Below are positions 7,625 through 48,007 of a stretch of 64,000 nt of DNA, piece after piece. Location: positions 62,001 to 126,000 of the forward strand of contig NZ_JABRWJ010000013.1 of the NCBI RefSeq assembly GCF_013266755.1. The letters are read 5' to 3'. Under the pieces are notes generated by a model that was not told where the DNA came from, did not search any database, and worked only from the letters and a program-made list of their open reading frames with translations. Position 1 is the stretch's first letter, and each line of letters begins with the position of its first letter. The DNA comes from Pseudaquabacterium terrae. Lineage in GTDB: Bacteria; Pseudomonadota; Gammaproteobacteria; Burkholderiales; Burkholderiaceae_C. The position numbers were made by a program, and so were the translations under genes.

Positions 7625-7667
7625 GGTGTTTGCCATGTATTCATTCCTTCGTCGATCGAACTATGCT
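7625..7667 (+). promoter_or_regulatory. Regulon promoter element, copy 1 (lipoprotein/TonB operon)
   Basis: GGTGTTT (7625-7631), 25 nt, CGAACTA (7657-7663), with TATGCT (7662-7667) as a -10-like hexamer and TTCATT (7640-7645) as a weak -35-like hexamer 16 nt before it. The spacing equals that of the copies at 22025, 29472 and 47965. GGTGTTT lies just upstream of the -35 position, as an activator site would. It is 130 bp before the lipoprotein start. Confidence 0.7.
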
Positions 7668-7797
7668 GCTTCGAAAGTGATTTATGGGCAAATCAAGTGC
7701 CGAGCAGAGGCGACGAGCTGCCTGCGCGGACGCCCGAGCTTGATGTGGACGGCGACGCTGCGGGCCCGGCAGCTCGGTGCGTCACGAGAAAAGGAGA

Positions 7798-9222
7798 ATG
7801 ACCGTGAGACAAGAGCTTCGGCCGGGGCGCATGACCCTGGTATCCATCGCCTGCGGCGTGCTGCTGGCGGCCTGTGGTGGCGGTGGCGGCGGCAGCAGCG
7901 GCGGCGAAGGCCGGCTGCAGCTCATCACCTTCGACTACCCCGGTGGCGGCACGCTGCTGTCGCCGCCGCAGAAGCTCAAGGCCACGACCACCTCGGGGCT
8001 GCCGGTCTCGTACCAGTCGACCACACCCACGATCTGCACGGTCACCGGTGATCAGATGACGCTGCTGACGACGGGCGAATGCCGCATCGTCGCCAGCCAG
8101 GAAGGCGGCACCAGCGCCGATGGCGTCAAGTGGGCGAAGGCGGAAGACGTCAGCCAGTTGTTCAACGTGCTCAAGCGCAGCCAGACCATCGCGATCGACG
8201 CACCGGACTACGTGCTGAGCAGCCAGACCAGCGACATCACGCTGAAGGCGAAGGCCAGTTCGGGGCTGCCGGTCACGCTCTCCGGCGGCACGCCGGGCGT
8301 GTGCACGCTCGAAGGCGACAAGCTTCGCGTGCTCGGCAAAGGCTCGTGCGCAGTGATCGCCACGCAGGCCGGCGATGCCAACCACAACGAGGGCCGGGCC
8401 GCCGGCTTCATCGCGGTCGACCCGCTGATCGTGGCCGACGGCATCCTCGGGGCCGGACAGGGCTCTTCGAGTTCGCTGACTACCAAGCAGGGCGGCGCGG
8501 TCAGCGCCAATCCCTGGTCGAGCATCGTCGGCGGCGGCTGGGAGTGGTGCGGCAACAGCGACGACACCTGCTTCCGCGCGGTGTCGGCCGACCAGCGCGT
8601 GTTCACCTCGGCGCTGCACATCCCGAAGTCGAAGTGGACGCCGGGCGGCTGGCATGCCAGCTCGAACACCATCGACATCTTCGCGCCCGGGCTCAGCGGC
8701 TTCGACAGCGCCGGCGACACCACCGGCGGGCTGCAGGTGACCACCGAGACCGCGTTGGCGATCAACCTCGGCGTCAACGAGGGCCTGTTGAAGGCGAAGA
8801 AGCCGGTGGTGGTGCAGCTCGACCTCGGCAAGCGCAACAACGGCTGCAACGTGAGCGTGAGCACCTTGCTCTGGCCGATTGCCCAGGTGGGAAGCTACGG
8901 CCTCCCGCTCGGCAACTTCGCGGTGACCGAGGCCTGCGGGATCGCCGGCGTCAGCACCGCCTCGCTCGACAACGACGTTCGCACGCTGCCGAATCCCTGG
9001 GGCACCGGGCCGTCGGACATCGTGGCCGCGTTGGCGGCCTACCAGGCGGCGCTCGACAAGTTCAAGCCGGCCCGCGATTCGGCCGTGCAGCTGATCAAGT
9101 CGTCCAACGTCGTGCGCGTGCGGCTGCGGCTGATGGACATCAACAGCGACACGTCAGCGGCTTCGGATGGCGACTTCTACGCCTCCGACCTGTCGGTCAT
9201 CGGCGCGATCACCATCCAGTAA
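7798..9222 (+). CDS. Outer-membrane lipoprotein, candidate surface glycan-binding protein
   Basis: No named family recognised. The lipobox LLAAC puts the lipid on Cys26, followed by a Gly/Ser linker and no Asp at +2, so outer-membrane sorting is expected. Two bacterial Ig-like repeats follow (each with a GLPV...CTV/CTL...GxC pattern), then about 270 residues rich in Trp, Cys and Gly (GGGWEWCGN, KWTPGGWHA) that look like a beta-sandwich ligand-binding domain. It is the first gene of an operon whose next gene, 50 bp on, is a TonB-dependent receptor, so it could capture xyloglucan at the surface as SusD-type partners do in Bacteroidetes. ATG 7798 follows AGGAG closely; GTG 7804 has better spacing and is an alternative. 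Function is inferred from position and lipobox only. Confidence 0.8.
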   Translation: MTVRQELRPGRMTLVSIACGVLLAACGGGGGGSSGGEGRLQLITFDYPGGGTLLSPPQKLKATTTSGLPVSYQSTTPTICTVTGDQMTLLTTGECRIVASQEGGTSADGVKWAKAEDVSQLFNVLKRSQTIAIDAPDYVLSSQTSDITLKAKASSGLPVTLSGGTPGVCTLEGDKLRVLGKGSCAVIATQAGDANHNEGRAAGFIAVDPLIVADGILGAGQGSSSSLTTKQGGAVSANPWSSIVGGGWEWCGNSDDTCFRAVSADQRVFTSALHIPKSKWTPGGWHASSNTIDIFAPGLSGFDSAGDTTGGLQVTTETALAINLGVNEGLLKAKKPVVVQLDLGKRNNGCNVSVSTLLWPIAQVGSYGLPLGNFAVTEACGIAGVSTASLDNDVRTLPNPWGTGPSDIVAALAAYQAALDKFKPARDSAVQLIKSSNVVRVRLRLMDINSDTSAASDGDFYASDLSVIGAITIQ

Positions 9223-9272
9223 CGCCCGAAGAGATCGTCATAGCGCCTGCCCAAAGAAAGTAGAGACGAGAC

Positions 9273-12200
9273 ATGAGACAACCCAAGCGGACCGCGATCT
9301 CCCTGGCCGTGGCCCACATCGCCCTGTTCGGCGGCACCGGCCTGGCGTACGCGCAAACGGCGACGCCGAAGCCCGGAGCGAATCCGACGACCGTGGTGGT
9401 CACCGGCCAGCGCCAGGCGCTTCAGACCGCCCAGAAGATCAAGCAGGAGGCCGAGGAGATCGTCGACTCGGTCGTCGCCGAAGAGGCGGGCAAGCTGCCC
9501 GACCGCTCGATCACCGAAGTGCTGCAGCGCGTCGTGGGCGTCACCGTGCAACGCCAGCGCACGATCGACATCGACGCCACGCACTACTCGGAAGAGGGCT
9601 CGGGCATCAAGGTGCGTGGCCTGTCCTGGGGCGCGTCGAACCTCAATAGCCGCGAGATCTTCTCCGCCGGCTGGCCGGGCCGTGACCTGAGCTGGGGGGC
9701 GGTGCCCACCGAGCTGATGTCCGGCGTGGACGTGTACAAGAACCCGTCGGCCGAGCAGATCGAAGGCGGCGTCAGCGGCCTGGTGAACCTGCGCACGGCG
9801 CTGCCCTTCGACTACAAGGGCACCAAGAGCTACGTCTCCTTCGGCAGCACCTACGAGCAGACGACGAAGAAGTCATCGCCATCCTTGTCGGGCCTGTACT
9901 CGACGCAATGGGAAGCCGAATCCGGTCGCTGGGGCGTGCTGGTCGACCTGAGCATGAACAACTCCACCTACGCGTCGGAGTCGGTCGATCTGGGTGCCTA
10001 CTTCCCGCGCACCGATGTGGTCCCCGGCCGGACCGCCTGGGTGCCGGACGGGGCGAGCTGGTCCAACAACGTCGGCAAGTCCGACCGTGTCGGCTTCTAC
10101 GGTGCGCTGCAGTGGAAGAAGAACGACATGCAGTCGTCGCTGACCTACTTCCTGACGAAGGGGCGCGAGCGTGACACCGGCGCGGGCATGTACCGCAGCC
10201 TGTCGCAGTTCGAGACGCCTTACGGCTCGGTGATCGACAACCCGGTGGTCGACGACCGCGGCGTGCTGGTGGCGGGCCACTACCGCTATCCCGTCGGCGG
10301 CCTGGGTGCGAATCGTTGGGCAGAGGGTGGCCTGGGCATGGGAACGACCCGTTCCTACAACGAGCACAAGACCAACACCGCCGAGTTGGCCTGGAACTTC
10401 AAATGGAACATCAACGACCGCTGGTCGCTGCAGAACGACCTGCAATGGGTGCGCTCGAAGTTCGACACCATCGGCCGCGAGATCCAGCTCGGCACCTTCG
10501 TGCCGAGCATGGACCTGTCGGTGCCGGGCAGCGGACCGTTGCGCATCGACTTCGACCAGAAGGCGCGTGACTTCCTGGCGGACCCCGGCAACTACTACTG
10601 GAACGTCATCCAGCCCAAGCAGTTCCGCGGTGACGCGGACATGGTTGCCTGGAAGGTCGATGCCAAGTTCAAGTTCGAGGACCCGGTGCTGCGCGACCTG
10701 CGCTTCGGCTACCGCGCCAGCCACAAGGCCTCGGAGCGCCAGGCCGCGGTCTTCGCCGGCGACACGGGCAGCACCGGGTGGAAGTCGATCGCCGAGCCGT
10801 GGGCCGTCACGACCACGCAGGTGCCTGGCCAGCTTCCCAACCAGGCCGACTACGGGTGGCAGCGCGGCGGCAGCCTCGCCTACCTGAACGACCCGCGCTA
10901 CCAGTTGCCGACCGAGGTCTACGCCTTCAACAACTTCCACGCCGGCCAGTTCGGTCAGCTTCCGAACGTGGTGTTCCCGACGGTCGCCCTGACCGGGGAC
11001 TACCCGGCCGCCTACGCCAAGCTGGTCGGGGACGTGCGGTACCAGCAATGCCTGGACGGCGTGCGCGACAAGGGTTCGGGCACCTGCGATCCGCAGAGCT
11101 TCTCCTTCGACCCCACGCTGCAGTACGGCCTCAATCCGAACATGACCAGCCGGCACACCGAGACCACGCAGGCGGTCTACGGCAACCTGCGCTTTGGCTT
11201 CGACGAGTGGAAGGTGCCGGTGGAGGGCAACGTCGGCGTGCGCGTGGTCTACAGCAAGGCGGTGGCCCATGGCTACACGGTCTTCACGCCCAACTATTCG
11301 AGCACGACGCCGCCCGACCTGCCGCGCTTCGGCCCGATCAACGAGAAGGTCGACGTGTCTGACAGCCACGTCGACGTGCTGCCGTCGATGAACCTGAAGT
11401 TCAACCTGAGCGGCGACAACAAGCTGATCAGCCGCATCGCCGTGGCACGCAGCATGTACCGCCCGGGCTTCAACCAGCTGCAGGAATCGATCAAGCTCGA
11501 GCAGAAGCACAACAGCGCCACCAACCAGGTCACCTACACCGGCGAGAACACCGGCAACGCGAGGCTCAAGCCACTGAAGGCCGACAACGTCGACCTCTCG
11601 CTCGAGTGGTACCCGCGCAACGGGCAGGCCCTCACTGCCGTCGCGTTCTACAAGGACGTGAAGGACATCATCTACGACAGTGCCTACACGCGCACCTTCA
11701 CCAGCCTGGCCGGCAACGAGCAGACCTTCGTGATCACCGGTCCGCAGAACGCGGCCCGCGGCAAGGTGGCCGGTCTCGAGCTGGCCGCCGAGACCTACCT
11801 CGACCACTTCGACGCGCTGAAGGACAAGCTGCCGACCTGGGCCAAGGGCATCGGCTTCTCGGCCAACTACACCTACATCGACAGCAAGAAGGAGCTGTAC
11901 AAGACCTCCGGGCTGATCTACTGCCCGGCCAGCAGTGCGATCGGCACCGACCCGGTGAAGCTGTCCGGTTGTGACACGAACGGCGTGCCGTTCGGCGACA
12001 TGCCGCTTGAAGGCCTGGCCAAGCACGCCGCCAACTTCGCGTTGCGCTACGACCGCGACGGGTTCTCGGCGCGGCTGGCGTACAACTGGAACAGCCGTTC
12101 GCTGAAGAGCGTCGGCACCTTCGGGAACCGCGAGAACAATGGCACCAGCGCCGACCCGGCACGTGCGGGCGCAAGGGACGCTTGGTGGGGCCTGCCGCTG

Positions 12201-12395
12201 TGGCAGGAGGCCTACGGCCAGTGGGACGGCGGCATGTCGTACGCCTTCACCGACAAGTTCTCGCTGTCGCTCAACATCTCCAACCTGAACAACGTGCAGG
12301 TACGCGAGACGCGGCAGCAGACCCCTGGCGACATGGGCAAGGTCTGGAAGTACCCGGGCCGCAGCTACTACCTCAGCGGCCGCTACGAGTTCTGA
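9273..12395 (+). CDS. TonB-dependent outer-membrane receptor 1
   Basis: A 1040-aa receptor of the oligosaccharide-importing type common in Xanthomonas, Caulobacter and Cellvibrio. It has a signal peptide ending at AYAQ, a TonB-box-like TVVVTGQR segment, a plug domain (VAEEAGKLPDRSITEVLQ; PTELMSGVDVYKNPSAEQIEGG), and a 22-strand barrel ending in an aromatic residue (SGRYEF), as needed for outer-membrane insertion. There is no N-terminal STN signalling domain, so it is not expected to signal to a sigma factor. It lies between the candidate glycan-binding lipoprotein and a halogenase-like gene, and shares signal and plug sequence with the second receptor at 33755. Likely cargo: oligosaccharides released by GH74, GH9 or GH5. 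Confidence 0.93.
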   Translation: MRQPKRTAISLAVAHIALFGGTGLAYAQTATPKPGANPTTVVVTGQRQALQTAQKIKQEAEEIVDSVVAEEAGKLPDRSITEVLQRVVGVTVQRQRTIDIDATHYSEEGSGIKVRGLSWGASNLNSREIFSAGWPGRDLSWGAVPTELMSGVDVYKNPSAEQIEGGVSGLVNLRTALPFDYKGTKSYVSFGSTYEQTTKKSSPSLSGLYSTQWEAESGRWGVLVDLSMNNSTYASESVDLGAYFPRTDVVPGRTAWVPDGASWSNNVGKSDRVGFYGALQWKKNDMQSSLTYFLTKGRERDTGAGMYRSLSQFETPYGSVIDNPVVDDRGVLVAGHYRYPVGGLGANRWAEGGLGMGTTRSYNEHKTNTAELAWNFKWNINDRWSLQNDLQWVRSKFDTIGREIQLGTFVPSMDLSVPGSGPLRIDFDQKARDFLADPGNYYWNVIQPKQFRGDADMVAWKVDAKFKFEDPVLRDLRFGYRASHKASERQAAVFAGDTGSTGWKSIAEPWAVTTTQVPGQLPNQADYGWQRGGSLAYLNDPRYQLPTEVYAFNNFHAGQFGQLPNVVFPTVALTGDYPAAYAKLVGDVRYQQCLDGVRDKGSGTCDPQSFSFDPTLQYGLNPNMTSRHTETTQAVYGNLRFGFDEWKVPVEGNVGVRVVYSKAVAHGYTVFTPNYSSTTPPDLPRFGPINEKVDVSDSHVDVLPSMNLKFNLSGDNKLISRIAVARSMYRPGFNQLQESIKLEQKHNSATNQVTYTGENTGNARLKPLKADNVDLSLEWYPRNGQALTAVAFYKDVKDIIYDSAYTRTFTSLAGNEQTFVITGPQNAARGKVAGLELAAETYLDHFDALKDKLPTWAKGIGFSANYTYIDSKKELYKTSGLIYCPASSAIGTDPVKLSGCDTNGVPFGDMPLEGLAKHAANFALRYDRDGFSARLAYNWNSRSLKSVGTFGNRENNGTSADPARAGARDAWWGLPLWQEAYGQWDGGMSYAFTDKFSLSLNISNLNNVQVRETRQQTPGDMGKVWKYPGRSYYLSGRYEF

Positions 12396-12400
12396 CGACC

Positions 12401-13876
12401 GTGGCCCCGCGCTTCGATCGCATCGTCGTCCTCGGCGGCGGCAGCGCCGGCTGGATGACCGCCACCGCCATCGCCACCGGCTTGCGTGGGCGCAGCTCGG
12501 TGGAGGTGGTGGAGTCCGAGGAGATCGGCATCATCGGCGTCGGCGAGGCCACGTTCCCGTCGATCCGCGAGTACAACCGCCTCGTCGGCATCGACGAGCG
12601 CGAGTTCCTGCGCGCCACCAACGGCACCTACAAGCTCGGCATCCAGTTCTGCGACTGGCTCGCACGCGGGCGCGACTACTTCCACACCTTCGGCCACTTC
12701 GGCAACCTGTCCGGCTCGCAGACGCTGTGGGGGCAGCACCGGCGCGTCGGCCTCACCGAGCCGCTCGGCCTGCAATGCGTGCCGACGGTGATGGCGATGA
12801 ACGGCCGCTTCGCGCTGCCGGACGAGAAGGACCCGCAGTTCAAGTACGCCTACCACTTCGATGCGGTGCAGTACGCGGCCTTCCTGCGCAAGCTCGCGAT
12901 CGAGCGCGGCGCACGCCACACCACGGGCCGCATCGTCGACGTGGTGCGCCGCGCCGATGGCGGCGTCGCTGCGCTGGTGCTGGCCGATGGCCGGCGCATC
13001 GAGGGGGACCTGTTCATCGACTGCTCGGGCTTCGGCTCGCTGCTGCTGGGCCGCACGCTCGACGAACCCTTCGTCGACTTCAGCCATTGGCTGCCGGTCG
13101 ACAGCGCCTGGGCCTGCCCCTGCGAGCGCAGCGGCGAGGCGCTGACGCCGTACACCCGCGCGACAGCGCTCGAAGGCGGCTGGGCCTGGCGCATCCCGCT
13201 GCAAAGCCGCACCGGCCACGGCCACGTCTTCAGCAGCCGCTTCATCGACGCCGAGCGCGCGCGCGAGCAACTGCTGGCGCAACTGGACGGCCCGCCCGTG
13301 GCCGAGCCGCGGCTGCTGCGCTTCACCACCGGCCACCGGCGCCGCTTCTGGGTGCACAACGTGGTGGCGGTCGGCCTGTCGTCCGGCTTCCTGGAGCCGC
13401 TGGAGTCCACCAGCATCTACCTGATCCAGGACGGCATCGGCCGGCTGATGACGCTGCTGACCGGCGGGCGGCCGCTGGTCGATGCAGACCGCGAGGACTT
13501 CAACGAAGGCGTGGCGCGGCGCTTCGCGCGCATCCGCGACTTCATCGTCCTGCACTACTGCCTCACGCGCCGGCGCGACAGCGCGCTGTGGCGCCACGTC
13601 GCGAGCATGGAGCTGCCCGAGACGCTGGCGTTCAAGCTGGACGCCTGGCGCCGGCACGGCATGCTGCACCAGGCCGACGAGGAAGGCTTCGACGCCACCA
13701 GCTGGCTCGCCGTGCTGGCCGGCATGGACCACTGGCCCGAGCGCGACGACCCGGTGTACGCCGAGGTTCCGTACGAGCGGGCCGTGCGCGCGCTGCAGTC
13801 GCGGCGCCACGGCATCGCCGCGATGGTGGAGCGCCTGCCCGCGCATCACCGCACGCTGCAGCACGTGGTCGGATAA
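12401..13876 (+). CDS. Tryptophan halogenase-family flavoprotein 1
   Basis: 491-aa FAD-dependent protein of the tryptophan halogenase family (PF04820). Visible motifs are the GGGSAGW dinucleotide fold at 12-18, the conserved Lys K78 in GTYKLG (equivalent by motif to the catalytic Lys of PrnA), the halogenase signature W261-A-W263-R-I-P, and EPLEST with E332 and E335. It should need a separate flavin reductase, and none is visible nearby. GTG 12401 lies 5 bp after the receptor stop, so the gene is co-transcribed with a glycan receptor and GH9. No signal peptide. Related genes beside TonB receptors are known in other polysaccharide degraders, but I know of no established role there; true halogenation is not demonstrated. 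Confidence 0.88.
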   Translation: MAPRFDRIVVLGGGSAGWMTATAIATGLRGRSSVEVVESEEIGIIGVGEATFPSIREYNRLVGIDEREFLRATNGTYKLGIQFCDWLARGRDYFHTFGHFGNLSGSQTLWGQHRRVGLTEPLGLQCVPTVMAMNGRFALPDEKDPQFKYAYHFDAVQYAAFLRKLAIERGARHTTGRIVDVVRRADGGVAALVLADGRRIEGDLFIDCSGFGSLLLGRTLDEPFVDFSHWLPVDSAWACPCERSGEALTPYTRATALEGGWAWRIPLQSRTGHGHVFSSRFIDAERAREQLLAQLDGPPVAEPRLLRFTTGHRRRFWVHNVVAVGLSSGFLEPLESTSIYLIQDGIGRLMTLLTGGRPLVDADREDFNEGVARRFARIRDFIVLHYCLTRRRDSALWRHVASMELPETLAFKLDAWRRHGMLHQADEEGFDATSWLAVLAGMDHWPERDDPVYAEVPYERAVRALQSRRHGIAAMVERLPAHHRTLQHVVG

Positions 13877-13936
13877 CGCCGATCGTCAACGACATCCCCA
13901 TGCCGGAGTGACCGGCGCTTTCCAACGGAGACAACG

Positions 13937-16108
13937 ATGAAGTACATGTCGTGCGTGCTGCTTTCGCTGGCGGCACTGGGCGCACCTGCGGGAGCGCAAA
14001 CGTGCCAGCCCAGCGCCGTCACCCCCTACCTCAACCTCAATGGCACCAACAGCTGGGCCGTGAAGGCCTCGGCGTCGCTGAACACCGGTTCCACCGTCGT
14101 TCTCGGGCCGCAGCCGGTCAGCGGCAGCTGGTCGTGGAGCGGCTGCGGTGCCTCGGGCTCGTCGCGCGAGCAGACCCTCAAGCTCACCGCGAGCTGCACG
14201 GCCACGGCCACCTACACCAACAGCTGTGGCGCCCGGACGGTCCAGGCGTACACCTTCACCGTCTGGCCGGCCCTGGCGGCCAACGCCGGCAAGTACATCA
14301 TGGTCGATCAGTTCGGCTACCTGCCGACCATGAAGAAGGTGGCGGTGCTGCGCTGGCCGCGGGTGGGCTACGACAGCAGCGAGTTCTACTGGCCGGGCCG
14401 CCTGCAGGTCGTGAACTCGGCCACCGGCGCGGTCGTGTACGACTGGTGGCCCCAGGAGTGGAAGAACCGGCAGATCGACGAGTCGTCGGGCGACCAGGCC
14501 TGGACCTTCGACTTCAGCCAGGTCACCACGCCGGGGACCTACGAGATCGTCGACGTCGACCGCAACCAGCGCTCCGCGCGCTTCGAGATCGGCGACAACG
14601 TCTACCGCAACGTGCTGGTGCAGGCGGTGCGGACCTTCTTCTACCAGCGTGCGGGCCAGGCCAAGAACGCGGCACAAGCCGGCGTCGGCTGGGCCGACGG
14701 GGCCAGTCATCTGAAGCCTGGACAGGACACGCAGGCGCGGCGCTTCCTCGACAAGAACAATGCCGCCACGGCGCGCGACCTGCGCGGCGGCTGGTACGAC
14801 GCGGGCGACCTCAACAAGTACACGAGCTGGGCGGCCGGCTATGTCGACGACCTGCTCGATGCCTACGTCCAGAACCCGACGGTGTGGACCGACGACTTCA
14901 ACCTGCCCGAGTCGTACAACGGCATCCCGGACCTGCTGGACGAGGCGAAGTGGGGCATGGACTGGCTGGTGCGCATGCAGAACGCCGACGGCTCGCTGCT
15001 GTCGATCGTCGGCCTGGCCGGCGCCAGCCCGCCGTCGGCCGCCACCGATCCGAGTTATTACGGCGATGCGAGCACGTCGGCCACGCTGGCCGCGGCGGCA
15101 GCCTTTGCGCACGGCGCCAAGGTCTTCGGCAGTCTGAACAGCACGGCGATGAAGACCTACGCCGCGGACCTGCAGGCGCGTGCCATCCGCGCGTGGAACT
15201 GGGCGTCGGCCAATCCCGGCGTCGTCTTCTACAACAACGACGCGTCGCGCGGCACTGCCGGCCTGGGCGCGGGCCAGCAGGAGACGGACGACGCGGGTCG
15301 GGCGCGGATGAAGCTGTACGCGGCCATCCAGCTGTACGCGGCCACCGGCGATGCCGCCTACCGCAACCATGTCGATGCCAACTACACCAGCGAGCCGATG
15401 TTCGCGCAGTGGTACGTGTCGGCCTACAACGCGGGCAGCGCGCGCGCGCTGCTCTACTACGCCTCGTTGTCCGGCGCCACCGCCAGCGTGGCCGGCAACA
15501 TCCGCACCCGCTTCCTCGACATGTGGGGCCGCTCCGACTACGGCGGCTGGGGCGCCGTCGATTCGCAGAAGGACCCGTACCGCGCCTACATCGAGGGCTA
15601 CCCCTGGGGCAGCAACAGCACCAAGGCCAACGCCGGCACGCTGTTCGCCGAGGAGAGCTACTACGGCATCAGCCGCCATTCAGCCGACGAGGTGGCCGCT
15701 GCGGCGGCCGGCTACCTGCACTACTTGCACGGCGTGAACCCGTTCGGCAAGGTGTATCTGACCAACATGACGAGCTTCGGCGCCGAGCGCTCGGTGAACC
15801 AGATCTTCCACAGCTGGTTCGCCGACGGCAGCGCGTTGTGGGACAGCGCGGAGACCTCCACCTACGGTCCCGCGCCCGGCATCCTGGTGGGCGGCCCGAA
15901 CCACGGGCAGTGGGACTGGGACAGTCGCTGCCCCGGCATCTCGCCCAAGTGCGGATCGAGCCGTCCGGCGCCGCCGTACGGGCAGCCGCCACAGAAGTCC
16001 TACCTCGACTTCAACGACGGCTGGCCGCTGCAGTCGTGGCCGATCAGCGAGAACTCCAACGGCTACCAGTCGGCGTACATCCGCCTGCTCGCCCGGTTCG
16101 TGAAGTGA
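13937..16108 (+). CDS. GH9 endo-beta-1,4-glucanase with N-terminal Cys-rich module
   Basis: Secreted 723-aa GH9 enzyme for beta-1,4-glucan or xyloglucan backbones. A Sec signal peptide ends at AGAQ. Residues 23-109 form a four-Cys module (Cys23, 70, 87, 97) with GPQPVSG and WSWSGCG motifs, almost the same as a module in the GH5 protein at 49727. A CelD-type N-terminal Ig domain follows (VDQFGYLP), then the alpha6/alpha6 barrel with D288 and D291 in [10 protein letters not shown] and the C-terminal acid E705 in [19 protein letters not shown] is also present. A good ribosome site (cGGAGac) precedes ATG 13937. It lies 60 bp after the halogenase-like gene and upstream of the xylose ABC genes. Confidence 0.93.
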
Positions 16109-16196
16109 TCGGCGCGGCGCGCCCTTGACCGGCGGCGATGCCCGGCTCACGCTGCGCACCGGGCGCGCCCCTTCAACCCCAAGCAGGAGAACGACC

Positions 16197-22067: not shown

Positions 22068-22133
22068 GCCGGGCATCCAGATCGACGGGGCGACCGTTCC
22101 CGCCCGCCGCACCATCCCTTGCCCTTGTCGTCC

Positions 22134-33602: not shown

Positions 33603-33754
33603 AGAGCATGCACGCCGCACACCACGAGCCGATCGGCCGATGTTGACGCTGGGCCGCGATCACGGCGGCACACCGGCGCACGAGGCCCTCAGCGGCCATT
33701 GAAGCAGTAGCCCCAGGGGTGGGGTGAGTTCGAAACCTTCAGAAAGACTACGAC

Positions 33755-36700: not shown

Positions 36701-36814
36701 AACCTCACGAACCGCATCAACCGGCAGCTGATGCAGCAGAACATCGGCATGATGACGCGTGCGGTGCACTACACCGGCCGTCGCTACACGCTGCAAGCCA
36801 GCTACACGTTCTGA
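33755..36814 (+). CDS. TonB-dependent outer-membrane receptor 2
   Basis: 1019-aa receptor with the same plan as the first: signal peptide to [14 protein letters not shown], plug with [18 protein letters not shown] and [21 protein letters not shown], and a long barrel ending QASYTF. No STN domain. Shared signal and plug sequence indicates ancient duplication, while the extracellular loops differ, which would allow a different oligosaccharide cargo. Its TGA overlaps the GH35 ATG, tying it to side-chain removal, as in known xyloglucan loci where a TonB receptor neighbours GH35, GH31 and GH95. Confidence 0.93.
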
Positions 36815-38487: not shown

Positions 38488-38490
38488 GCC

Positions 38491-39849: not shown

Positions 39850-41207
39850 TGAACCCCTTGACCTATGCCTCGCCGTTCCCATCCACCTTCGTCTTCGGTG
39901 CCGCCGCCGCGGCCGCGCAGATCGAGGGTGCCGCTTTCAAGGACGGCAAGGGTCCCTCGATCTGGGACACCTTCGCCCGCACGCCGGGCAAGGTGGCCGG
40001 CGGCGACACGCTCGACGTCGCCTGCGACCACTACCACCGCTTCGACGAAGACTTCGCGCTGATGGCCTCGCTCGGCATCCGGCACTACCGGCTGTCGATC
40101 GCCTGGCCGCGCATCTTCCCCGATGGCGACGGCGCGGTGAACCAGGCCGGCCTCGACTTCTACCGCCGCGTCTTCGCCAGCATGGCGCGCCATGGCATCA
40201 CGCCGTGGGTCACGCTGTTCCACTGGGACCTGCCGCAGGCGCTGGAAGACCGCGGCGGCTGGACCGCGCGGGCCACTGTCGAGTCTTTTGCGCGTTATGC
40301 AGACACTGTCGTCAAGGCGTTCGCCGGCGACGTGCGGCACTGGATCACGCTCAACGAGATCCGCTGCTTCACGTGGCTGGCCTACGGCATCGGCAACAAG
40401 GCGCCCGGCCGGCGCGAAAGCGATGCGATCGTCAACCAGACCATCCACCATGCGCTGCTCGCCCACGGCCATGCGGTGCGCGCGGTGCGCGAGTTCGGTG
40501 GACCGCAGGCGCGCGTGGGCCTGACGGACAACTGCGACGTCAGCGTGCCGGTGACCGAGACAGCGGCCGACATCGCCGCCGCCGAGGCCTGGTTCGAGGA
40601 CAAGAACGCCCACATCCTCGGCGCGATCCACGGCGGCGGCTACTCGAAGGCCTACCTGGAGCGTGTGGGCGATGCCGCCCCGAAGGTGCAGGCCGGCGAC
40701 TTCGACCTCATCAGCCTGCCCACCGACTTCCTCGGCCTGAACGTCTACACCGCGACCTACGTGCGCGCCGGCCGCGACGGCGCGCGGTACGAGGCGCTGG
40801 CCCTGCCGGCCAACTACCCGCGCGCCGACAGCCCGTGGCTGAACCTCGTGCCGCAGGCGATGTACTGGGCGCCGCGCATGTGCCACGCGCTCTACGGCCA
40901 CCGCTCGATCTACATCACCGAGAACGGCTGCGGCTACAACCACGAGCCGGTGCAGGGCGGCGAGGTCATCGACCTGCATCGGCGCGATTACCTGCGCGGC
41001 CACCTGCGCGAGATGCACCGCGCGATCGCCGACGGCGTGCCGGTGGACGGCTACTTCCTGTGGTCCTTCATCGACAACTTCGAGTGGGAGGACGGCTACG
41101 AGCGCCGCTTCGGCATCGTGCACTGCGACTTCGAGACGCAGGTGCGCACGCCCAAGCTGTCCGCGCGCTACTACGCCGACGTGATCCGCACGCGCTGCAT
41201 CGTCTAG
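39849..41207 (+). CDS. GH1 beta-glucosidase, cytoplasmic
   Basis: 452-aa GH1 enzyme of standard length. The acid/base is E170 in ITLNEIRCF (TxNE motif) and the nucleophile E358 in YITENGCG; WPRIFPDG and HWDLPQALED are also typical. No signal peptide, so it acts on imported cello- or glucosyl-oligosaccharides. ATG overlaps the esterase TGA (TGATG). The next genes are a LacI regulator and a GPH symporter, giving a small import-and-hydrolyse module. Confidence 0.93.
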   Translation: MNPLTYASPFPSTFVFGAAAAAAQIEGAAFKDGKGPSIWDTFARTPGKVAGGDTLDVACDHYHRFDEDFALMASLGIRHYRLSIAWPRIFPDGDGAVNQAGLDFYRRVFASMARHGITPWVTLFHWDLPQALEDRGGWTARATVESFARYADTVVKAFAGDVRHWITLNEIRCFTWLAYGIGNKAPGRRESDAIVNQTIHHALLAHGHAVRAVREFGGPQARVGLTDNCDVSVPVTETAADIAAAEAWFEDKNAHILGAIHGGGYSKAYLERVGDAAPKVQAGDFDLISLPTDFLGLNVYTATYVRAGRDGARYEALALPANYPRADSPWLNLVPQAMYWAPRMCHALYGHRSIYITENGCGYNHEPVQGGEVIDLHRRDYLRGHLREMHRAIADGVPVDGYFLWSFIDNFEWEDGYERRFGIVHCDFETQVRTPKLSARYYADVIRTRCIV

Positions 41208-41219
41208 GCTGCGAAAGAC

Positions 41220-42305
41220 GTGGCCACCGTCCTGAAGCCCCGCAAGTCCCGCGCCGCCACGCTGGCGGACGTGGGCCGCGAGGCCGGCGTCTCGGCGATG
41301 GCCGCGTCGGCCGTGCTCAACTCGGCGAAGACCTCCACCCGCATCTCCGACGACACACGGGCGCGCGTGCTGGCCGCCGCCGAGCAGCTGCGCTACCGGC
41401 CCAACGCCACCGCGCGCGGGCTGGCGCACCGGCGCATGAACACGCTGGGCGTGGCCGCCACGCTGGTCGGCGACGAGCCGAACCAGTATTTTCTCGAAGT
41501 CTTCAACGGCATCGTCCGCGGCGCCGCCGAGGCCGGGCAGACCACCACGGTCTTCACGCTCGGCAGCTGGGACGACGCGCGCGAGCGCATTCCCGCTTTC
41601 TGCGACGGTCGCATCGATGGGCTGGTGATGCTGGCGCCGCTGTTGCCGTCCGACGCCGCCGACTGGCTGCCCGAGCACACGCCGATGGTCTCGGTGCACG
41701 CGAACGACGCGATCGCCGGCGTGGTCAACCTCGAGTCCGACGAAGAGGCCGGTGCCTTCGAGATGGTCAGCCGCCTGATCCAGCGCGGCCATCGGCGCAT
41801 CCTGCACGTGGCGGGTCCCGAGGGCGCCCTCGGGGCCGAGCGGCGCGTGCACGGCTACCGGCGCGCGCATGCGGCCGCGGGCTTCCTGCCGCCGCCGGAC
41901 CACGTGCTGCGCGCCGGCTTCGGTGCCGAGGACGCCCGCCGCGCCCTGGAAGCCTGGTTGCGGCGGCACCGCGGCGACGAACTGCCGGAGGTGGTCTTCG
42001 CCGTCAGCGATGCCGCGGCGCTGGGCTGCATCGATGCCTTGTTGGCCCGCGGCCTGCGCGTGCCGGCCGATCTGTCCGTGACGGGATTCGACGACAGCGT
42101 GCTCGCGCGCGCGGCCCGGCTGGCCACGGTGCGCCAGCCGCTGCGCGACCTGGGGCGCCGCGCGGTCGAGGTGCTGGTCGAGCGCATCGACGCCCGGTCG
42201 CGTGAAGCGACGCCGCGCCGCACGAAGAACATCGTCCTGCCCACCGAACTCGTTCACGGCGCCACGCTTGCCGCGCCGCGCGCCCATTCCCTGCTGATTG
42301 CCTGA
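41220..42305 (+). CDS. LacI-family transcriptional regulator
   Basis: 361-aa regulator. The N-terminal helix-turn-helix and hinge span about residues 14-67 (TLADVGREAGVS, then VLNSAKTSTRISDDTRARVLAAAEQLRYRPN), followed by a periplasmic-binding-protein-like sensor domain (LGVAATLVGDEPNQYF, IDGLVMLAPLLP, FAVSDAAALGCIDALL, SVTGFDDSVLA). GTG 41220 lies 12 bp after GH1. It is most like gluconate/glucoside-type LacI members and probably responds to a sugar handled by the adjacent GH1 or GPH transporter. No operator could be assigned. Confidence 0.9.
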   Translation: MATVLKPRKSRAATLADVGREAGVSAMAASAVLNSAKTSTRISDDTRARVLAAAEQLRYRPNATARGLAHRRMNTLGVAATLVGDEPNQYFLEVFNGIVRGAAEAGQTTTVFTLGSWDDARERIPAFCDGRIDGLVMLAPLLPSDAADWLPEHTPMVSVHANDAIAGVVNLESDEEAGAFEMVSRLIQRGHRRILHVAGPEGALGAERRVHGYRRAHAAAGFLPPPDHVLRAGFGAEDARRALEAWLRRHRGDELPEVVFAVSDAAALGCIDALLARGLRVPADLSVTGFDDSVLARAARLATVRQPLRDLGRRAVEVLVERIDARSREATPRRTKNIVLPTELVHGATLAAPRAHSLLIA

Positions 42306-42315
42306 GACCGCCCCG

Positions 42316-43737
42316 ATGCTGATGCCCGCCACCACCCGCACCGACCGGGTCCCCATGAGCCAGAAGGCCGGCTACGGCCTGGGCTCCTTCCTCGACATGT
42401 GGGGGCACTGGCTCTACTCGTCGTTCGCCTATTCGGTCTTCAACATCTTCCTCGGCGTCGCGCCTGGGCTCATCTCGACGGCGATGATGCTCAAGACGCT
42501 GATGGACGCGGCGTCCGACGCCGCGTTCGGTTGGCTGTCGGACAACACGCGCACGCGCTGGGGACGGCGGCGGCCGTTCATGCTCGTGGGCGGCGTGCTC
42601 GCCGGGATCGGGCTGCCGCTGCTGTTCGCCGTCGGCCGCGACTGGACCCAGACGCAGTACTTCATCTTCATGCTGGTGTCGCTGTTGATCTACGCGCCGG
42701 TGATGAGCTGCTTCAACATGCCCTGGGTCAGCCTCGGCGCGGAAATGACGCCCGACTACCACGAACGCACCGTCGTCTTCCAGGTCAAGAACGCGATCCA
42801 GAAGCTGCCCGAGCTGGGGCTGTTCGTGGCCGTGCAGTTCGCGACGCTGTCGATCTTCAACGGCTCCAACGGCAAGCCGGACGTCCTGCAGGGCGCCCAG
42901 GTCTACACAGCGATCCTCGGTGCGATCATGGTGGCGGTGTCGATCGCGATGTTCCTGCTGGTGCGGGAGCGCTACTACGAGAAAGTGGTGGTCACGCAGA
43001 CCGCCAAGGTGCCGTTCCGCGACACGCTGTACCGCACACTGCGCAACAAGCCCTTCCGCACCCTGCTGTCGGCGATGATGGCCTACGGCATGGCCACCGC
43101 GATGGTCGGCACGCTCGGTTTCTACCTGACCGTCTACTACGTCTGCAAGGGTGACCTGGCGCTGGGCGGGCGCTGGAACTCCGCGATGGGCCTGTCGGGC
43201 ATGGCGTTCGGCTTTGCCGGCATCTTCTTCTTCGGCGCCATTGCCAAGCGCTTCGGCAAGCGGGTCGGCATGATGGCGGTGCTGTCCGGCGCCATCGCCG
43301 CCTTCATCGGCGACTGGTTCTTCTACAACCCGGACTATCCGGTGCTGCAGCTCCTGGCCTCTGGCTGCGTGGCCTTCACCGGCGCCGGCTTCTGGACCAT
43401 CTACGGCTCGATGCTCGCCGACGTCGTCGACCACGACGAACTGCAGACGGAGCAGCGCCGCGAGGGCTCGTTCTCGGCCTGCCAGTCATGGATCTCGCGC
43501 GCCGGCATGGCGCTCGGCAGCGGTGCCTCGGGCTGGATCCTGCAGTTCACTGGCTTCGATTCCCAGATCCAGGGGCCGCAGGACGAGAACGTCATCCTGG
43601 TGATGCGGCTGCTGATGTCCGGCGTGCCGGTGGTCGGCCTGTTGATCGCGCTGGTCCTCGTCTCGCGCTTCAAGCTCGACGAGGCGCGCGTGCACGAGAT
43701 CCGGCTGCAGCTCGAAGCGCGTCGCGGCACGGTATGA
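42316..43737 (+). CDS. GPH-family sugar:cation symporter
   Basis: 473-aa inner-membrane symporter of the glycoside-pentoside-hexuronide family (MFS superfamily) with about twelve hydrophobic segments. MMLKTLMDAASDAAFGWLSDNTRTRWGRRRPFM contains the family loop with the conserved Asp and the RWGRRRP motif. It likely brings in glucosides or xyloglucan-derived oligosaccharides for the cytoplasmic GH1 and GH31. ATG 42316 is chosen; TTG 42298 would overlap the regulator. 83 bp separate it from GH95, with a GC-rich hairpin-like stretch but no T-run. Confidence 0.88.
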   Translation: MLMPATTRTDRVPMSQKAGYGLGSFLDMWGHWLYSSFAYSVFNIFLGVAPGLISTAMMLKTLMDAASDAAFGWLSDNTRTRWGRRRPFMLVGGVLAGIGLPLLFAVGRDWTQTQYFIFMLVSLLIYAPVMSCFNMPWVSLGAEMTPDYHERTVVFQVKNAIQKLPELGLFVAVQFATLSIFNGSNGKPDVLQGAQVYTAILGAIMVAVSIAMFLLVRERYYEKVVVTQTAKVPFRDTLYRTLRNKPFRTLLSAMMAYGMATAMVGTLGFYLTVYYVCKGDLALGGRWNSAMGLSGMAFGFAGIFFFGAIAKRFGKRVGMMAVLSGAIAAFIGDWFFYNPDYPVLQLLASGCVAFTGAGFWTIYGSMLADVVDHDELQTEQRREGSFSACQSWISRAGMALGSGASGWILQFTGFDSQIQGPQDENVILVMRLLMSGVPVVGLLIALVLVSRFKLDEARVHEIRLQLEARRGTV

Positions 43738-43820
43738 GCGGCCGGACCGATCGGCGGCGCCGACGCCTGCGAAGTGCCGCGGCGTGACGGTCGGCGACCG
43801 CTGAACAACGACACTTCGCG

Positions 43821-46292
43821 ATGAACCCCTTCGACACCACGCGCCGCGGCTTCGTCGCGAGCGCCGCGCTCGGCTCCACGCTGCTGTCGGCGCTGCCGGC
43901 CTGGGCGAGCAGCGGCGCAGCCAGGGTCGCCGATGATGCGCTGAGCCTCTGGTACGACCAGCCCGCCGGCCCCTGGATCGAGGCGCTGCCGGTGGGCAAC
44001 GCCCGCCTGGGCGCAATGGTCTTCGGCCGCCCGGCACAGGAGCGGCTCCAGCTCAACATCGACACGCTCTACGGCGGCGGCCCGTATGTGCAGGACAACC
44101 CCGCCTTTCGCGAAGCGCTGCCCAAGGTCCGACAGCTGATCGAGCAGGCACGCTGGAAGGAAGCCAACGAGCTGGTGTCGGCGTCGCTGATGGGCAAGCC
44201 GCTGAAGCAGATGCCCTTCAGCAGCGCCGGCGACCTGATGCTCGACTTCCCCGGCGTCAGCGGCGCGGCGCGCTACCGCCGCAGCCTCGACCTCGACAGC
44301 GCCGTCGCCGTCACGAGCTTCATCGACGGCGGCGGCCGCCACCAGCGCGAGGCCTTCTGCAGCGTGCCCGATCAGGTGGCTGTGATCCGCCTCGAACTCG
44401 CAGGCGAAGGCACCATCGACCTCGACCTCGGCTATCGCCACGCCGACTACCAGCCCTACGGCGGCTTCGGCGACACGAAGCACGACGCACACGGCGTCGT
44501 CTACGTCGGTGCGCCCTGGAACCACCGCGAGTCGCTCAACGCCGAGAAGCGTCCCGGCTCACTGTCGATCCGCGCCGACGGCAGCGACGCGCTGCTGATC
44601 GAAGGTCGCAATGTCGCGGCCTTCGGCATTCCCGGCCAGCTGCGCTACGCGCTGCGCGTGCAGGCGGTGGGCGACGGCCGCATCGAGGCCGGCGGCGACC
44701 GGCTGCGCGTGCGCGGCGCGCGCCGGCTGACGCTGCTGATCGCGGGCGATACCAGCTACGTCAACTACCAGGATGTGAGCGGCGACCCCGTGGCCGCGGT
44801 GCGCCAGCGCACCGCCGCGGCGGCGCGCAAGCCGTACGACAAGCTGCGCGCCGACCACGTCCGCAGCCACCGCGCGCTGTTCCGCCGCCTGCACATCGAC
44901 CTCGGCGGCCACGAGGCCGATGCGAAGCCCACGCACGCCCGCATCGCCGGCGTGCCGCGCGCGCCCGATGCGGCGCTGGCCGCGCTGTACGTGCAATATG
45001 CGCGTTATCTGCTCTTGTCGTGCTCGCGGCCCGGCAGCCAGCCCGCCAACCTGCAGGGTGTGTGGAACGAGGTCCTGCACCCGCCCTGGGAAGGCAAGTA
45101 CACGATCAACATCAACACCGAGATGAACTACTGGCCTGCCGGGCCGGCGAATCTCGGCGAGTGCGTCGAGCCGCTGCTGAAGATGGTGGAGGACCTCGCG
45201 GTCACCGGCGCGCGCACCGCGCGCAACAGCTACGGCGCGCGCGGCTGGGTCACGCACCACAACACCGACCTGTGGCGCGCCACCGCGCCGCTGGACGGCC
45301 CGCTGTGGGGCATGTGGCCCACCGGCGGCGCATGGCTGTGCACGACGCTGTGGGAGTACTACCGCTACCAGCCCAGCCCCGCGCTGTTGCGCCGGCTGGC
45401 GCCGCTGCTGAAGGGCGCCTCACTGTTCTTCCTGGACACGCTGGTCGAGGACCCAAAGGGCCGCGGCCTCGTCACGTCGCCGTCGATCTCGCCCGAGAAC
45501 GAGCATCACCCCCAGGTCGCGCTGTGCGCCGGCCCGGCGATGGACAGCCAGATCCTGCGCGACCTGTTCGACGCGACGCTCGAGGCGCAGTCCACGCTGG
45601 GCGATGCCGACCCCACGTTCGCCGAGGCCCTGCGCAGGGCGCGCGCGCGCCTGCCGGCCGACCGCATCGGTGCGCAGGGCCAGTTGCAGGAGTGGCTCGA
45701 AGACTGGGACGCGATCGCGGCCGATCAACAGCACCGCCATGTCTCGCACCTGTACGCGGTCTATCCGAGCGGCCAGGTCAACGTGCGCGACACGCCGGGA
45801 CTGGTGCAGGCGGCGCGCGTGACGCTGAACGCCCGCGGCGACGAGAGCACCGGCTGGGCCACCGCGTGGCGGCTGGCGCTGTGGGCGCGGCTGGGCGACG
45901 GCGAGCGCGCCTACAAGATCCTGCAGGGCCTGCTGGGGCCGCAGCGCACCTACCCGAACATGTTCGACGCCCACCCACCGTTCCAGATCGACGGCAACTT
46001 CGGCGGCGCGGCCGGCATCCTGGAGATGATCGTGCAGTCCTGGGGCGGCGAGGTGCACCTGCTCGCCGCGCTGCCGCGCGCCTGGCCCCAGGGCCGGCTG
46101 CACGGGGTGCGGGCGCACGGCGGGCTGGAACTGGACGTCGATTGGCTGGGCGGGCAGCTCGACCGGTTGCGCCTGCGCGGGCCTGCGCGGGCCGCGGTCG
46201 CGCTGCGCTACCGAGGCCAGCTTCTGAAGCTGACGCTCGATGGACGCGGCCGCGCCCGCGTCGCGGCCGCTGACTTCAAGGCGCCGGCATGA
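43821..46292 (+). CDS. GH95 alpha-L-fucosidase
   Basis: 823-aa inverting fucosidase, expected to remove alpha-1,2-L-fucose from the galactosyl side chain of xyloglucan. A twin-arginine-like leader (TRRGFVASAALGS) suggests Tat export to the periplasm. The N-terminal sandwich starts LWYDQPAGPWIEALPVGN; the catalytic barrel holds N430 and N432 in TININTEMNYW, acid E559 in SPENEHHP and D724 in PFQIDGNFGG, matching the AfcA-type active site. It overlaps GH43 by 4 bp and follows the GPH symporter. Confidence 0.93.
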   Translation: MNPFDTTRRGFVASAALGSTLLSALPAWASSGAARVADDALSLWYDQPAGPWIEALPVGNARLGAMVFGRPAQERLQLNIDTLYGGGPYVQDNPAFREALPKVRQLIEQARWKEANELVSASLMGKPLKQMPFSSAGDLMLDFPGVSGAARYRRSLDLDSAVAVTSFIDGGGRHQREAFCSVPDQVAVIRLELAGEGTIDLDLGYRHADYQPYGGFGDTKHDAHGVVYVGAPWNHRESLNAEKRPGSLSIRADGSDALLIEGRNVAAFGIPGQLRYALRVQAVGDGRIEAGGDRLRVRGARRLTLLIAGDTSYVNYQDVSGDPVAAVRQRTAAAARKPYDKLRADHVRSHRALFRRLHIDLGGHEADAKPTHARIAGVPRAPDAALAALYVQYARYLLLSCSRPGSQPANLQGVWNEVLHPPWEGKYTININTEMNYWPAGPANLGECVEPLLKMVEDLAVTGARTARNSYGARGWVTHHNTDLWRATAPLDGPLWGMWPTGGAWLCTTLWEYYRYQPSPALLRRLAPLLKGASLFFLDTLVEDPKGRGLVTSPSISPENEHHPQVALCAGPAMDSQILRDLFDATLEAQSTLGDADPTFAEALRRARARLPADRIGAQGQLQEWLEDWDAIAADQQHRHVSHLYAVYPSGQVNVRDTPGLVQAARVTLNARGDESTGWATAWRLALWARLGDGERAYKILQGLLGPQRTYPNMFDAHPPFQIDGNFGGAAGILEMIVQSWGGEVHLLAALPRAWPQGRLHGVRAHGGLELDVDWLGGQLDRLRLRGPARAAVALRYRGQLLKLTLDGRGRARVAAADFKAPA

Positions 46293-47920
46293 CGGACCGT
46301 CCAACGCTCCCTTCCAGCGCCCGGCGCCGAGCGATGAAAGCCGTGCTCGCCGGAGCGACCGGCGCAGCGGTGGTCCCGGCCACGGCCGCCGCGCCGTCGG
46401 CCGCGGCCCGCGCCGCCGCGCCCCGCTTCGGCCGCGGTGTCGAAGGCCAGCGCCAGGCCGACCTTGGCGACGGCACCTACCTCAACCCGATCGTGCCGGG
46501 CGACCACCCGGACCCGACGATCCTGAAGGACGGCGCCGACTACTACATGACCTTCTCGTCGTTCCAGTCGACGCCGGGTGCCGTGATCTGGCACTCGCGC
46601 GACCTGGTGAACTGGACGCCGATCACTGCCGCACTGCTGAAGCCGATCGGCACCGTCTGGGCGATGGACCTGGTCAAGCATGGCGGCCGCTACTTCCTGT
46701 ACATCCCGGTGCTGCAGCCGAACCGCATCGCGACCTTCGTCGTGCACGCGGATCACATCCGCGGCCCCTGGAGCGAGCCGATCGACCTGGGCCTGGATGG
46801 CTGCATCGACCCCGGCCACATCGTCGGCGAGGACGGCAGGCGCTACCTGTTCGTCAACGGCTTCCGCCGCATCGGCCTCGCCGACGACGGCCTGTCCACC
46901 GTGGGCCGGCTCGAGCCTGCGCACACGCCGTGGCAGTACCCGCAGGACTGGGTGGTCGAGATGTTCGCGCCGGAGGGGCCGAAGCTGCTGCGCCGCGGCG
47001 ACTGGTTCTACATGATCTCCGCGGTCGGCGGCACCAGCGGGCCGCCGACCAGCCACATGGTCACCGTGGCGCGCGCGCGATCGATCCACGGGCCGTGGCA
47101 GGACTGCCCCTTCAACCCGATCGTGCGCACGCGAAGCGCCGACGAGCCGTGGTGGTCGCGCGGCCATGCCAGCGTCGTCGAAGGCCCGGCCGGCGACTGG
47201 TGGATGGTCTACCACGGCTACGAGAACGGCTTTCGGACGCTGGGCCGGCAGACGCTGCTGGAGCCCATCGAGTGGACGGCCGACGGCTGGCTGCGTGCCA
47301 AGGGCGGCACGCTCGACCGCCCCTTGCGCAAGCCGCGGGGCGGCCAGGCCGGACCCGCGGGCCTGGCGCTGTCGGACGACTTCCGCGGCAGCCGCATCGG
47401 CCTGCAGTGGAGCTTTTTCGACGCTGCGCCGGACGAGCTCGCGCGCGCTCGCCACGGCGCCGACGGCCTCACGCTGCGCGGCAAGGGCAGCGGCCCGGCC
47501 GACTGCTCGCCGCTGACCTGCCTGGTGGGCGAGCGCAGCTACGAGGCGGAGCTGGACTTCGAAGTGAGCGGCCAGGCGGTGGGCGGCCTCGCGCTCTTCT
47601 ACGACGCGCGCGGCTTCGTCGGCCTCGGCATCGGCGAAGGGCAGCTGCGCACCTGGCAGTACGGCCAGGAGCAGAGCTGGATGCGGCAGCCGGTGAACGG
47701 ACAGCGGCACCGGCTGAAGGTCACCAACCGCGAGCACATCGTCACCTTCCACCACGCCGCCGGCGACGGTCCTTGGGTCCAGCACCCGTGGCAGATGGAG
47801 GTTTCCGGCTTCCATCAGAACGTCTTCGGCGGCTTCCTGAGCCTGCGCATCGCGCTGATCGCGGCCGGGCAGGGCGACGTGCGCCTCACCCGCTTCAGCT
47901 ACCGCGGCCTCGGCACCTGA
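46289..47920 (+). CDS. GH43 beta-xylosidase/alpha-L-arabinofuranosidase
   Basis: 543-aa enzyme. The N-terminus has ARRRAMKAVLAGA, a possible Tat leader. A five-bladed propeller carries the three GH43 acids: base D75 in GDHPDPTIL, pKa modulator D174 in CIDPGHI and acid E229 in FAPEGPKLL. A C-terminal beta-sandwich (about 360-543, SDDFRGSRIGLQWSFF) is of the kind found in xylosidase and arabinofuranosidase GH43 members. It is the last gene of the long ROK-to-GH43 unit; the next promoter element starts 45 bp after its stop. Confidence 0.9.
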   Translation: MTDRPTLPSSARRRAMKAVLAGATGAAVVPATAAAPSAAARAAAPRFGRGVEGQRQADLGDGTYLNPIVPGDHPDPTILKDGADYYMTFSSFQSTPGAVIWHSRDLVNWTPITAALLKPIGTVWAMDLVKHGGRYFLYIPVLQPNRIATFVVHADHIRGPWSEPIDLGLDGCIDPGHIVGEDGRRYLFVNGFRRIGLADDGLSTVGRLEPAHTPWQYPQDWVVEMFAPEGPKLLRRGDWFYMISAVGGTSGPPTSHMVTVARARSIHGPWQDCPFNPIVRTRSADEPWWSRGHASVVEGPAGDWWMVYHGYENGFRTLGRQTLLEPIEWTADGWLRAKGGTLDRPLRKPRGGQAGPAGLALSDDFRGSRIGLQWSFFDAAPDELARARHGADGLTLRGKGSGPADCSPLTCLVGERSYEAELDFEVSGQAVGGLALFYDARGFVGLGIGEGQLRTWQYGQEQSWMRQPVNGQRHRLKVTNREHIVTFHHAAGDGPWVQHPWQMEVSGFHQNVFGGFLSLRIALIAAGQGDVRLTRFSYRGLGT

Positions 47921-47964
47921 GGCCCGGCGCGCGGGTGCGTGCGCGCACGCCGCCTTCGCGCTTC

Positions 47965-48007
47965 GGTGTTTGCCCGAAGTTCATTGCTTCGACGACCGAA
48001 CTAACAT
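47965..48007 (+). promoter_or_regulatory. Regulon promoter element, copy 4 (GH51-GH5-GH29-GH2 operon)
   Basis: GGTGTTT (47965-47971), 25 nt, CGAACTA (47997-48003), TAACAT (48002-48007) as -10-like hexamer and TTCATT as -35-like hexamer. It is 104 bp upstream of GH51, in the same orientation and geometry as copies 1 to 3. Confidence 0.7.

What the first reader, a model, noticed from the sequence alone, without database searches (positions are those of the whole stretch)
7625..48007. One promoter/operator architecture, with fixed spacing, precedes four operons of the locus
At 7625, 22025, 29472 and 47965 I find GGTGTTT, then exactly 25 nt, then CGAAYTA, overlapping a -10-like hexamer (TATGCT, TAGTAT, TATGAT, TAACAT) at the same offset. 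In all four copies a TT pair sits at spacer positions 9-10 and 13-14, and CGA at 22-24, giving CGA-N-CGAAYTA. The -35 position is weak (TTNNTT), and GGTGTTT lies just upstream of it, as an activator site would. All four precede plus-strand units, together about 40 kb, and the same spacing in unrelated flanks is unlikely by chance. This defines a xyloglucan/xylose/fucose regulon and gives a search motif for the rest of the genome.
Basis: seen in the sequence. Interest (0 to 1): 0.78.

Follow-up and report, generated by a model that had tools for sequence, protein, structure and literature searches.

The report
XylR-type promoter switch of xyloglucan genes
The repeated promoter sequence is real: it looks like the binding site of a xylose-type (ROK) repressor beside a second short control element, placed before the operons with which this bacterium would digest the plant sugar polymer xyloglucan.

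Summary
GGTGTTT-N25-CGAAYTA occurs exactly four times in the 8.04-Mb genome, all in this locus, at the stated places. The reading needs refining. The right part is one half of a 25-bp inverted repeat, consensus TTNNTTCG-N9-CGAACTAA, with the length and similar outer halves of the Bacillus XylR operator. It spans the presumed -35/-10 region and lies upstream of the ROK gene in all 13 genomes with a close ROK orthologue. A strict operator pattern, built from those sites, occurs in 12 of 399 family genomes, all among these 13. GGTGTTT is the left part of a second, separable dyad, GGTG-N4-CACC, centred near -43. Its distance to the operator varies by 1 bp either way between genera, so 'exactly 25' is not universal. 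The local LacI protein is an unlikely binder: 7 of the 13 genomes lack its orthologue. Best reading: an autoregulated XylR-like ROK repressor regulon, probably helped by an unidentified activator. Binding, inducer and transcription starts are not shown.

The parts
7640..7664 (+). 25-bp XylR/ROK-type operator, copy 1 (overlaps -10-like 7662-7667, TATGCT)
   Evidence: footprint vs G143
7625..7636 (+). GGTGTTTGCCAT: upstream dyad element, copy 1 (right arm degenerate)
22040..22064 (+). ROK-type operator, copy 2 (poorest inner left part; -10-like 22062-22067, TAGTAT)
22025..22036 (+). GGTGTTTCCACC: upstream dyad element, copy 2 (outer arms GGTG/CACC perfect)
29487..29511 (+). ROK-type operator, copy 3, about 44 bp before the ROK gene itself (-10-like 29509-29514, TATGAT)
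29472..29483 (+). GGTGTTTCCCCC: upstream dyad element, copy 3
47980..48004 (+). ROK-type operator, copy 4 (-10-like 48002-48007, TAACAT)
47965..47976 (+). GGTGTTTGCCCG: upstream dyad element, copy 4
   Evidence: conserved in G143
2838..7483 (-). minus-strand unit behind the fifth site: BNR-repeat (GH74-like, inferred) protein 5201-7483, GH31 2838-5114
7777..19167 (+). unit 1: unassigned protein 7777-9222, TonB-dependent receptor, Trp-halogenase-family protein, GH9, xylF (TIGR02634), ABC permease and ATPase
22119..27729 (+). unit 2: sugar ABC ATPase, permease, binding protein, aldo/keto reductase, amidohydrolase
29555..30790 (+). ROK-family regulator (HTH + ROK domain), proposed repressor
30787..47920 (+). 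rest of unit 3: xylB-like FGGY kinase, xylA, TonB-dependent receptor, GH35/42-like, GDSL, GH1, LacI, MFS, GH95, GH43
48109..55555 (+). unit 4: alpha-L-arabinofuranosidase, GH5, GH29-type fucosidase, GH2

Best explanation
A XylR-like ROK repressor, encoded at 29555-30790 next to xylB and xylA, binds the 25-bp operator (consensus TTNNTTCG-N9-CGAACTAA). The operator spans the presumed -35/-10 region of its own promoter and of the other xyloglucan/xylose operons, so bound repressor would keep RNA polymerase off until xylose (or a xylose-bearing oligosaccharide) releases it. Immediately upstream, centred near -43, a second conserved dyad (GGTG-N4-CACC) most likely binds a separate, unidentified class-II-type activator that makes up for the weak -35. 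Shown: the sites, their symmetry, their conservation against diverged flanks, and their co-occurrence with this ROK gene. Inferred: ROK binding, xylose as inducer, repression by occlusion, and activation through the dyad.
For:: four exact copies, all in one locus; the operator pattern with up to 3 mismatches gives 41 matches in 13 genomes against 4 for the reversed control; a site upstream of the ROK gene in 13 of 13 genomes with an orthologue of at least 64% identity; a strict pattern (up to 1 mismatch) occurs in 12 of 399 family genomes, all 12 among those 13; reversed control 2 matches. Fisher p 4.5e-22 is not corrected for relatedness, nor for the pattern having been built from these sites; the telling part is its absence from the other 386; in the genus, matches in G000, G143, G227 (ROK present), none in G011, G296, G356 (no ROK match at E<=1e-60); 40-46 of 47 core bases identical between G000 and G143 with diverged or gapped flanks; inverted repeat centred at operator positions 13 and 15; the B. 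subtilis operator TTAGTTTGTTTGGGCAACAAACTAA has the same length and similar outer halves; two of 17 more distant ROK loci (45-46%) also carry a good 25-bp site, and a 46% ROK of G293 has one about 150 bp upstream; the sites precede CAZyme, xylA/xylB and transport genes in relatives too; dyad arms complementary in 50 of 68 outer pairs (random expectation 20, sd 3.7); two operators before ROK paralogues in G030 (L075, L110) lack the dyad, so the two are separable.
Against: No binding, expression or transcription-start data exist here. Copy 2 has a poor inner left part and the fifth copy lacks a good left element. Two more ROK-like genes lie in the genome (C5:52163, 79%; partial C2:200007, 77%) and could share or own the sites. 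The shorter operator pattern gave 13 matches against 23 for its reversed control in six genomes (12 of the 13 are at the sites already known), so it is not specific by itself. The dyad has no identified protein, and searches for it away from ROK promoters were not enriched: 5 sites against 7 control matches, 10 in all against 23, 20 against 15. Fifteen of 17 more distant ROK loci (43-53%) show no good operator within the stretch held, at most about 1.5 kb on either side.
Confidence: 0.8

Rival explanations
1. The whole 40-bp block, dyad included, is bound by the ROK protein alone; GGTGTTT is an extended contact rather than a second protein's site.
For: The strict dyad is found largely beside ROK operators (6 of 11 hits in 13 genomes), and I saw no other regulator gene in common next to these loci (labels by similarity to window proteins only).
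Against: The dyad has its own symmetry and no likeness to the operator half-site; its distance to the operator varies by 1 bp either way; operators before ROK paralogues or distant ROK genes occur without it (L075, L110; L047).
Confidence: 0.2
2. GGTGTTT is the site of the LacI-family regulator encoded at 41220-42305.
For: The LacI gene lies in the same unit, and a paralogous ROK-LacI pair exists at C5:52163-54480.
Against: No orthologue at E<=1e-70 in 7 of the 13 genomes, including G144 with the arms GGTGTTTTCACC.
Confidence: 0.06
3. The similarity is chance or a recently copied promoter cassette without regulatory meaning.
For: Copies 2 and 3 also share eight bases just upstream (TGTCGGTA).
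Against: Flanks of the copies agree at only 19-36 of 100; sites in seven genera; 41 matches against 4 for the control.
Confidence: 0.02

Closest known systems
XylR (ROK family) and its xyl operator, Bacillus subtilis / Firmicutes
   Same: HTH + ROK protein beside xylA/xylB; 25-bp inverted repeat with outer halves TTAGTTTG/CAAACTAA (passage of PMC12034463); the same two strongest symmetry centres, 13 and 15.
   Different: Proteobacterial; half-site consensus TTCG/CGAA instead of TTTG/CAAA; an extra dyad at about -43; the regulon holds TonB-dependent receptors, Trp-halogenase-type proteins and many glycoside hydrolases.
Caldicellulosiruptorales XylR
   Same: Operator core TTAGTTTGTTTAATAAACAAACTAA before xylA; regulator of a xylose/xylo-oligosaccharide cluster (passages of PMC12285236).
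   Different: Distant lineage; no upstream dyad mentioned in the passages seen.
NagC and Mlc (ROK regulators)
   Same: Same protein architecture.
   Different: Scores far below NCBIfam cut-offs (113.5 vs 650; 106.2 vs 530).

Membership tests
XylR-type ROK repressor | N-terminal winged HTH plus ROK domain | tested here: met
   PF00480 165.3 bits, HTH_24 26.2 bits
XylR-type ROK repressor | encoded with xylA/xylB | tested here: met
   xylA TIGR02630 667 bits over cut-off 533; FGGY kinase next to it; xylA and/or xylB labelled after ROK in 12 of 13 genomes, the contig of the 13th ending at ROK
XylR-type ROK repressor | 25-bp inverted-repeat operator of the Bacillus XylR type | tested here: met
   17 sites; symmetry centres 13 and 15 as in B. 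subtilis; CGAACTAA exact in 12 of 17, left half looser
XylR-type ROK repressor | site upstream of its own gene | tested here: met
   13 of 13 genomes with the close orthologue
XylR-type ROK repressor | operator overlaps the core promoter | tested here: inconclusive
   overlaps a conserved TANNAT (A27 16/17, T28 14/17, outside the repeat); no start sites mapped
XylR-type ROK repressor | xylose releases it from DNA | not testable with these tools
   needs binding assays
NagC / Mlc | NCBIfam equivalog cut-off | tested here: not met
   113.5 of 650 and 106.2 of 530 bits
Class-II activator site | symmetric site centred near -41.5 next to a weak -35 | tested here: inconclusive
   dyad centre about -42 to -44 by sequence; protein and start site unknown

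The most novel reading that the evidence does not exclude
A composite promoter in which a XylR-type ROK repressor and an unrecognised class-II activator, with a new recognition dyad GGTG-N4-CACC, act together at near-fixed positions to run a whole xyloglucan-utilisation system in one family of Burkholderiales.
Probability: 0.45. Interest if true: 0.55.

Novelty: new variant of a known kind. Interest (0 to 1): 0.45.

Why it matters
It turns a pattern seen by eye into a testable regulon: one repressor, five sites in the window and one likely outside, and a search motif that tracks the regulator gene across seven genera. It places a Bacillus-like xyl operator in Betaproteobacteria at the head of a TonB-receptor polysaccharide locus. 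It also isolates a second short element whose protein is unknown and could be fished out with a 40-bp probe.

Tried and rejected
LacI (41220-42305) as reader of the dyad: rejected, orthologue absent at E<=1e-70 from 7 of 13 genomes. Dyad as a genome-wide regulon: the strict pattern gives 5 non-ROK sites against 7 control matches in 13 genomes; a one-mismatch version gives 10 matches (5 of them at sites already known) against 23 control in two genomes; an extended TAGGTGTTTNCMCTAGG version gives 20 against 15 in 13 genomes. None is enriched. My first operator reading (21 bp, 5-bp spacer) was replaced by the 25-bp reading, which covers the outer TT; both symmetries coexist. One search did not turn the loci that lie on the minus strand, so its blanks for those are void; read both strands. 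A TTAGTT-N13-AACTAA search, up to 2 mismatches, in 17 loci of more distant ROK relatives (43-53%) found none (0.6 expected by shuffling), but it was too strict: the weight matrix finds good sites in two of them, L047 (32.8 bits) and L046 (24.3), against 35-43 for the window sites. I first wrote that the operator was confined to close orthologues; that was wrong and is mended. The order-wide search (1 of 399, the own genome) says little, because none of the other 12 ROK-bearing genomes was in that sample and the others were not checked for the gene. Rfam: no match in the window. Papers: listings (title, start of abstract) only; one search found none; passages read in PMC2873477, PMC9104551, PMC12034463 and PMC12285236. 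No paper on a ROK/XylR regulon for xyloglucan in Burkholderiales was recognised in the listings; most subscription journals are not held.
Full report
Observation. The pattern GGTGTTT-N25-CGAAYTA is present exactly at the four stated places. In the 64-kb window, with 3 mismatches allowed, 5 matches are found against 1.65 expected, so the loose pattern is weak evidence. The exact pattern is strong evidence: only these four occur in 8.04 Mb, and the exact reversed control has none. With up to 2 mismatches the genome gives 16 matches against 11 control, so looser matches elsewhere are mostly chance. In 299 family genomes exact matches lie in 5 genomes; two of these (G173, G121, one match each) look like chance, close to the control's 5 matches.

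What the right half is. Sites were collected from ROK-orthologue upstream regions and pattern hits. For the matrix I used 17: five from the window, the extra G143 site, and one from each of 11 other genomes; the five G143 copies orthologous to the window's were left out. The best symmetry is a 25-bp repeat with 12-bp arms centred on operator position 13 (65% of 204 pairs), with a second centre at position 15 (54%). At distances 4-7 centre 15 scores 54 of 68 and centre 13 scores 43 of 68, the next best 27; the B. subtilis operator scores 4 of 4 at the same two centres. That operator, TTAGTTTGTTTGGGCAACAAACTAA, is described as ten palindromic base pairs on either side of five central ones (PMC12034463, passage). 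The P. polymyxa paper gives the core as GTTT-N7-AAAC (PMC9104551, passage); here the consensus is GTTC-N7-GAAC, with the right arm exact in 15 of 17 sites but the left in only 6 of 17. So the operator is of the Bacillus XylR type with a C/G change in each half and a loose left half. Beyond the repeat, A27 (16 of 17) and T28 (14 of 17) are also conserved, as a -10 would be.

Link to the ROK protein. The 399-genome family sample has 59 genomes with a ROK match at E<=1e-60, of which 13 (seven genera) have one at 64% identity or more. In all 13 a site lies upstream of the ROK gene. The strict operator pattern occurs in 12 of the 399, all among those 13, with 2 control matches; the thirteenth, G293, has a 2-mismatch site before its ROK gene. 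Fisher's p is 4.5e-22, but relatedness is not corrected and the pattern was built from these sites; the informative part is that none of the other 386 genomes matches. In the genus, three genomes with the gene have matches and three without have none, although that shorter pattern's reversed control (23) exceeds its 13 matches. The operator type also reaches some more distant ROK genes: L047 (ROK 45%) and L046 (46%) of 17 examined, and a 46% ROK of G293 (C445). By my ORF labels, the divergent neighbour is a Trp-halogenase-type gene in 11 of the 13; a TonB receptor and a GH35/42-like gene follow in the window and in 8 relatives, several of the other stretches ending too soon.

Footprint. Between the window and G143 the 47-bp core is identical at 46, 45, 46, 43 and 40 positions for the five sites, while the flanks are gapped and diverged except where they run into coding sequence. 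Among the window's own copies only the core is similar.

More sites. A fifth site at 7598-7574 (-) diverges from copy 1 and heads GH74-like and GH31 genes. A sixth, weaker site (21.9 bits against 35-43) at C5:50869(-) precedes alpha-galactosidase and GH127 genes; the matrix was run on the window and six 20-kb stretches, not the whole genome. G143 has an extra site before GH5, GH3, fucosidase and arabinofuranosidase genes. These are plant-cell-wall genes, which supports the regulon reading.

The upstream element. Aligned over 17 sites, GGTGTTT is the left arm of a dyad GGTG-N4-CACC; outer pairs are complementary in 50 of 68 cases against 20 (sd 3.7) with random partners. The best copies are GGTGTTAACACC (G206) and GGTGTTTTCACC (G144); several, among them three of the window's four, have degenerate right arms. 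Relative to the -10 the centre falls near -42 to -44, a class-II activator position. The dyad is separable: two G030 operators before ROK paralogues lack it (L075, L110), as does L047. I could not name its protein. The LacI of the locus is unlikely, being absent from 7 of 13 genomes, and no wider set of dyads was enriched over controls.

Mechanism. Shown: positions, symmetry, conservation, co-occurrence. Inferred from the XylR family: without xylose the ROK dimer covers the core promoter; xylose freed from xyloglucan by the encoded enzymes releases it; the ROK gene regulates itself. Inferred with less confidence: the dyad binds an activator.

Verdict. A real, well-conserved regulatory architecture; a new variant (Bacillus-type operator, proteobacterial xyloglucan locus, extra dyad) of the known XylR/ROK regulon. 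The dyad's protein is the open part.

Noticed in passing
G000:C5:52163-54480 and G000:C2:200007-201586 (outside the window): A second ROK-LacI gene pair (79% and 75% identical to the window's) lies about 8-10 kb upstream of the window, and a partial ROK/LacI pair on another contig.
   Followed up: partly
window 12392-13876 (+) and 27794-29395 (-): Two tryptophan-halogenase-family proteins sit inside the xyloglucan locus; a homologue of the second is divergent from ROK in 11 of 13 genomes, which hints at a role in TonB-receptor sugar loci rather than halogenation.
   Followed up: no
G000:C23:367104-367144 (-), L144: TAGGTGTTTTCACTAGG followed by TAGTTAAGTAAACTAACTA before an enoyl-CoA hydratase-like gene (name from its sequence, not scanned): the same dyad-like element with a different repeat.
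   Followed up: partly
L119 and L126 (G238:C27:15976, G156:C28:993037): TAGGTGTTTGCACC by the end of a LacI-like gene in two species of one genus, about 45 bp before a conserved GTTTACTAAAA.
   Followed up: partly
G030:C6:62570, G030:C20:71770, G223:C99:12306, G293:C445:50253: Near-perfect 25-bp repeats of the same operator type away from the close ROK orthologue (two just after LacI genes, one about 150 bp before a 46% ROK gene), perhaps operators of ROK paralogues.
   Followed up: partly
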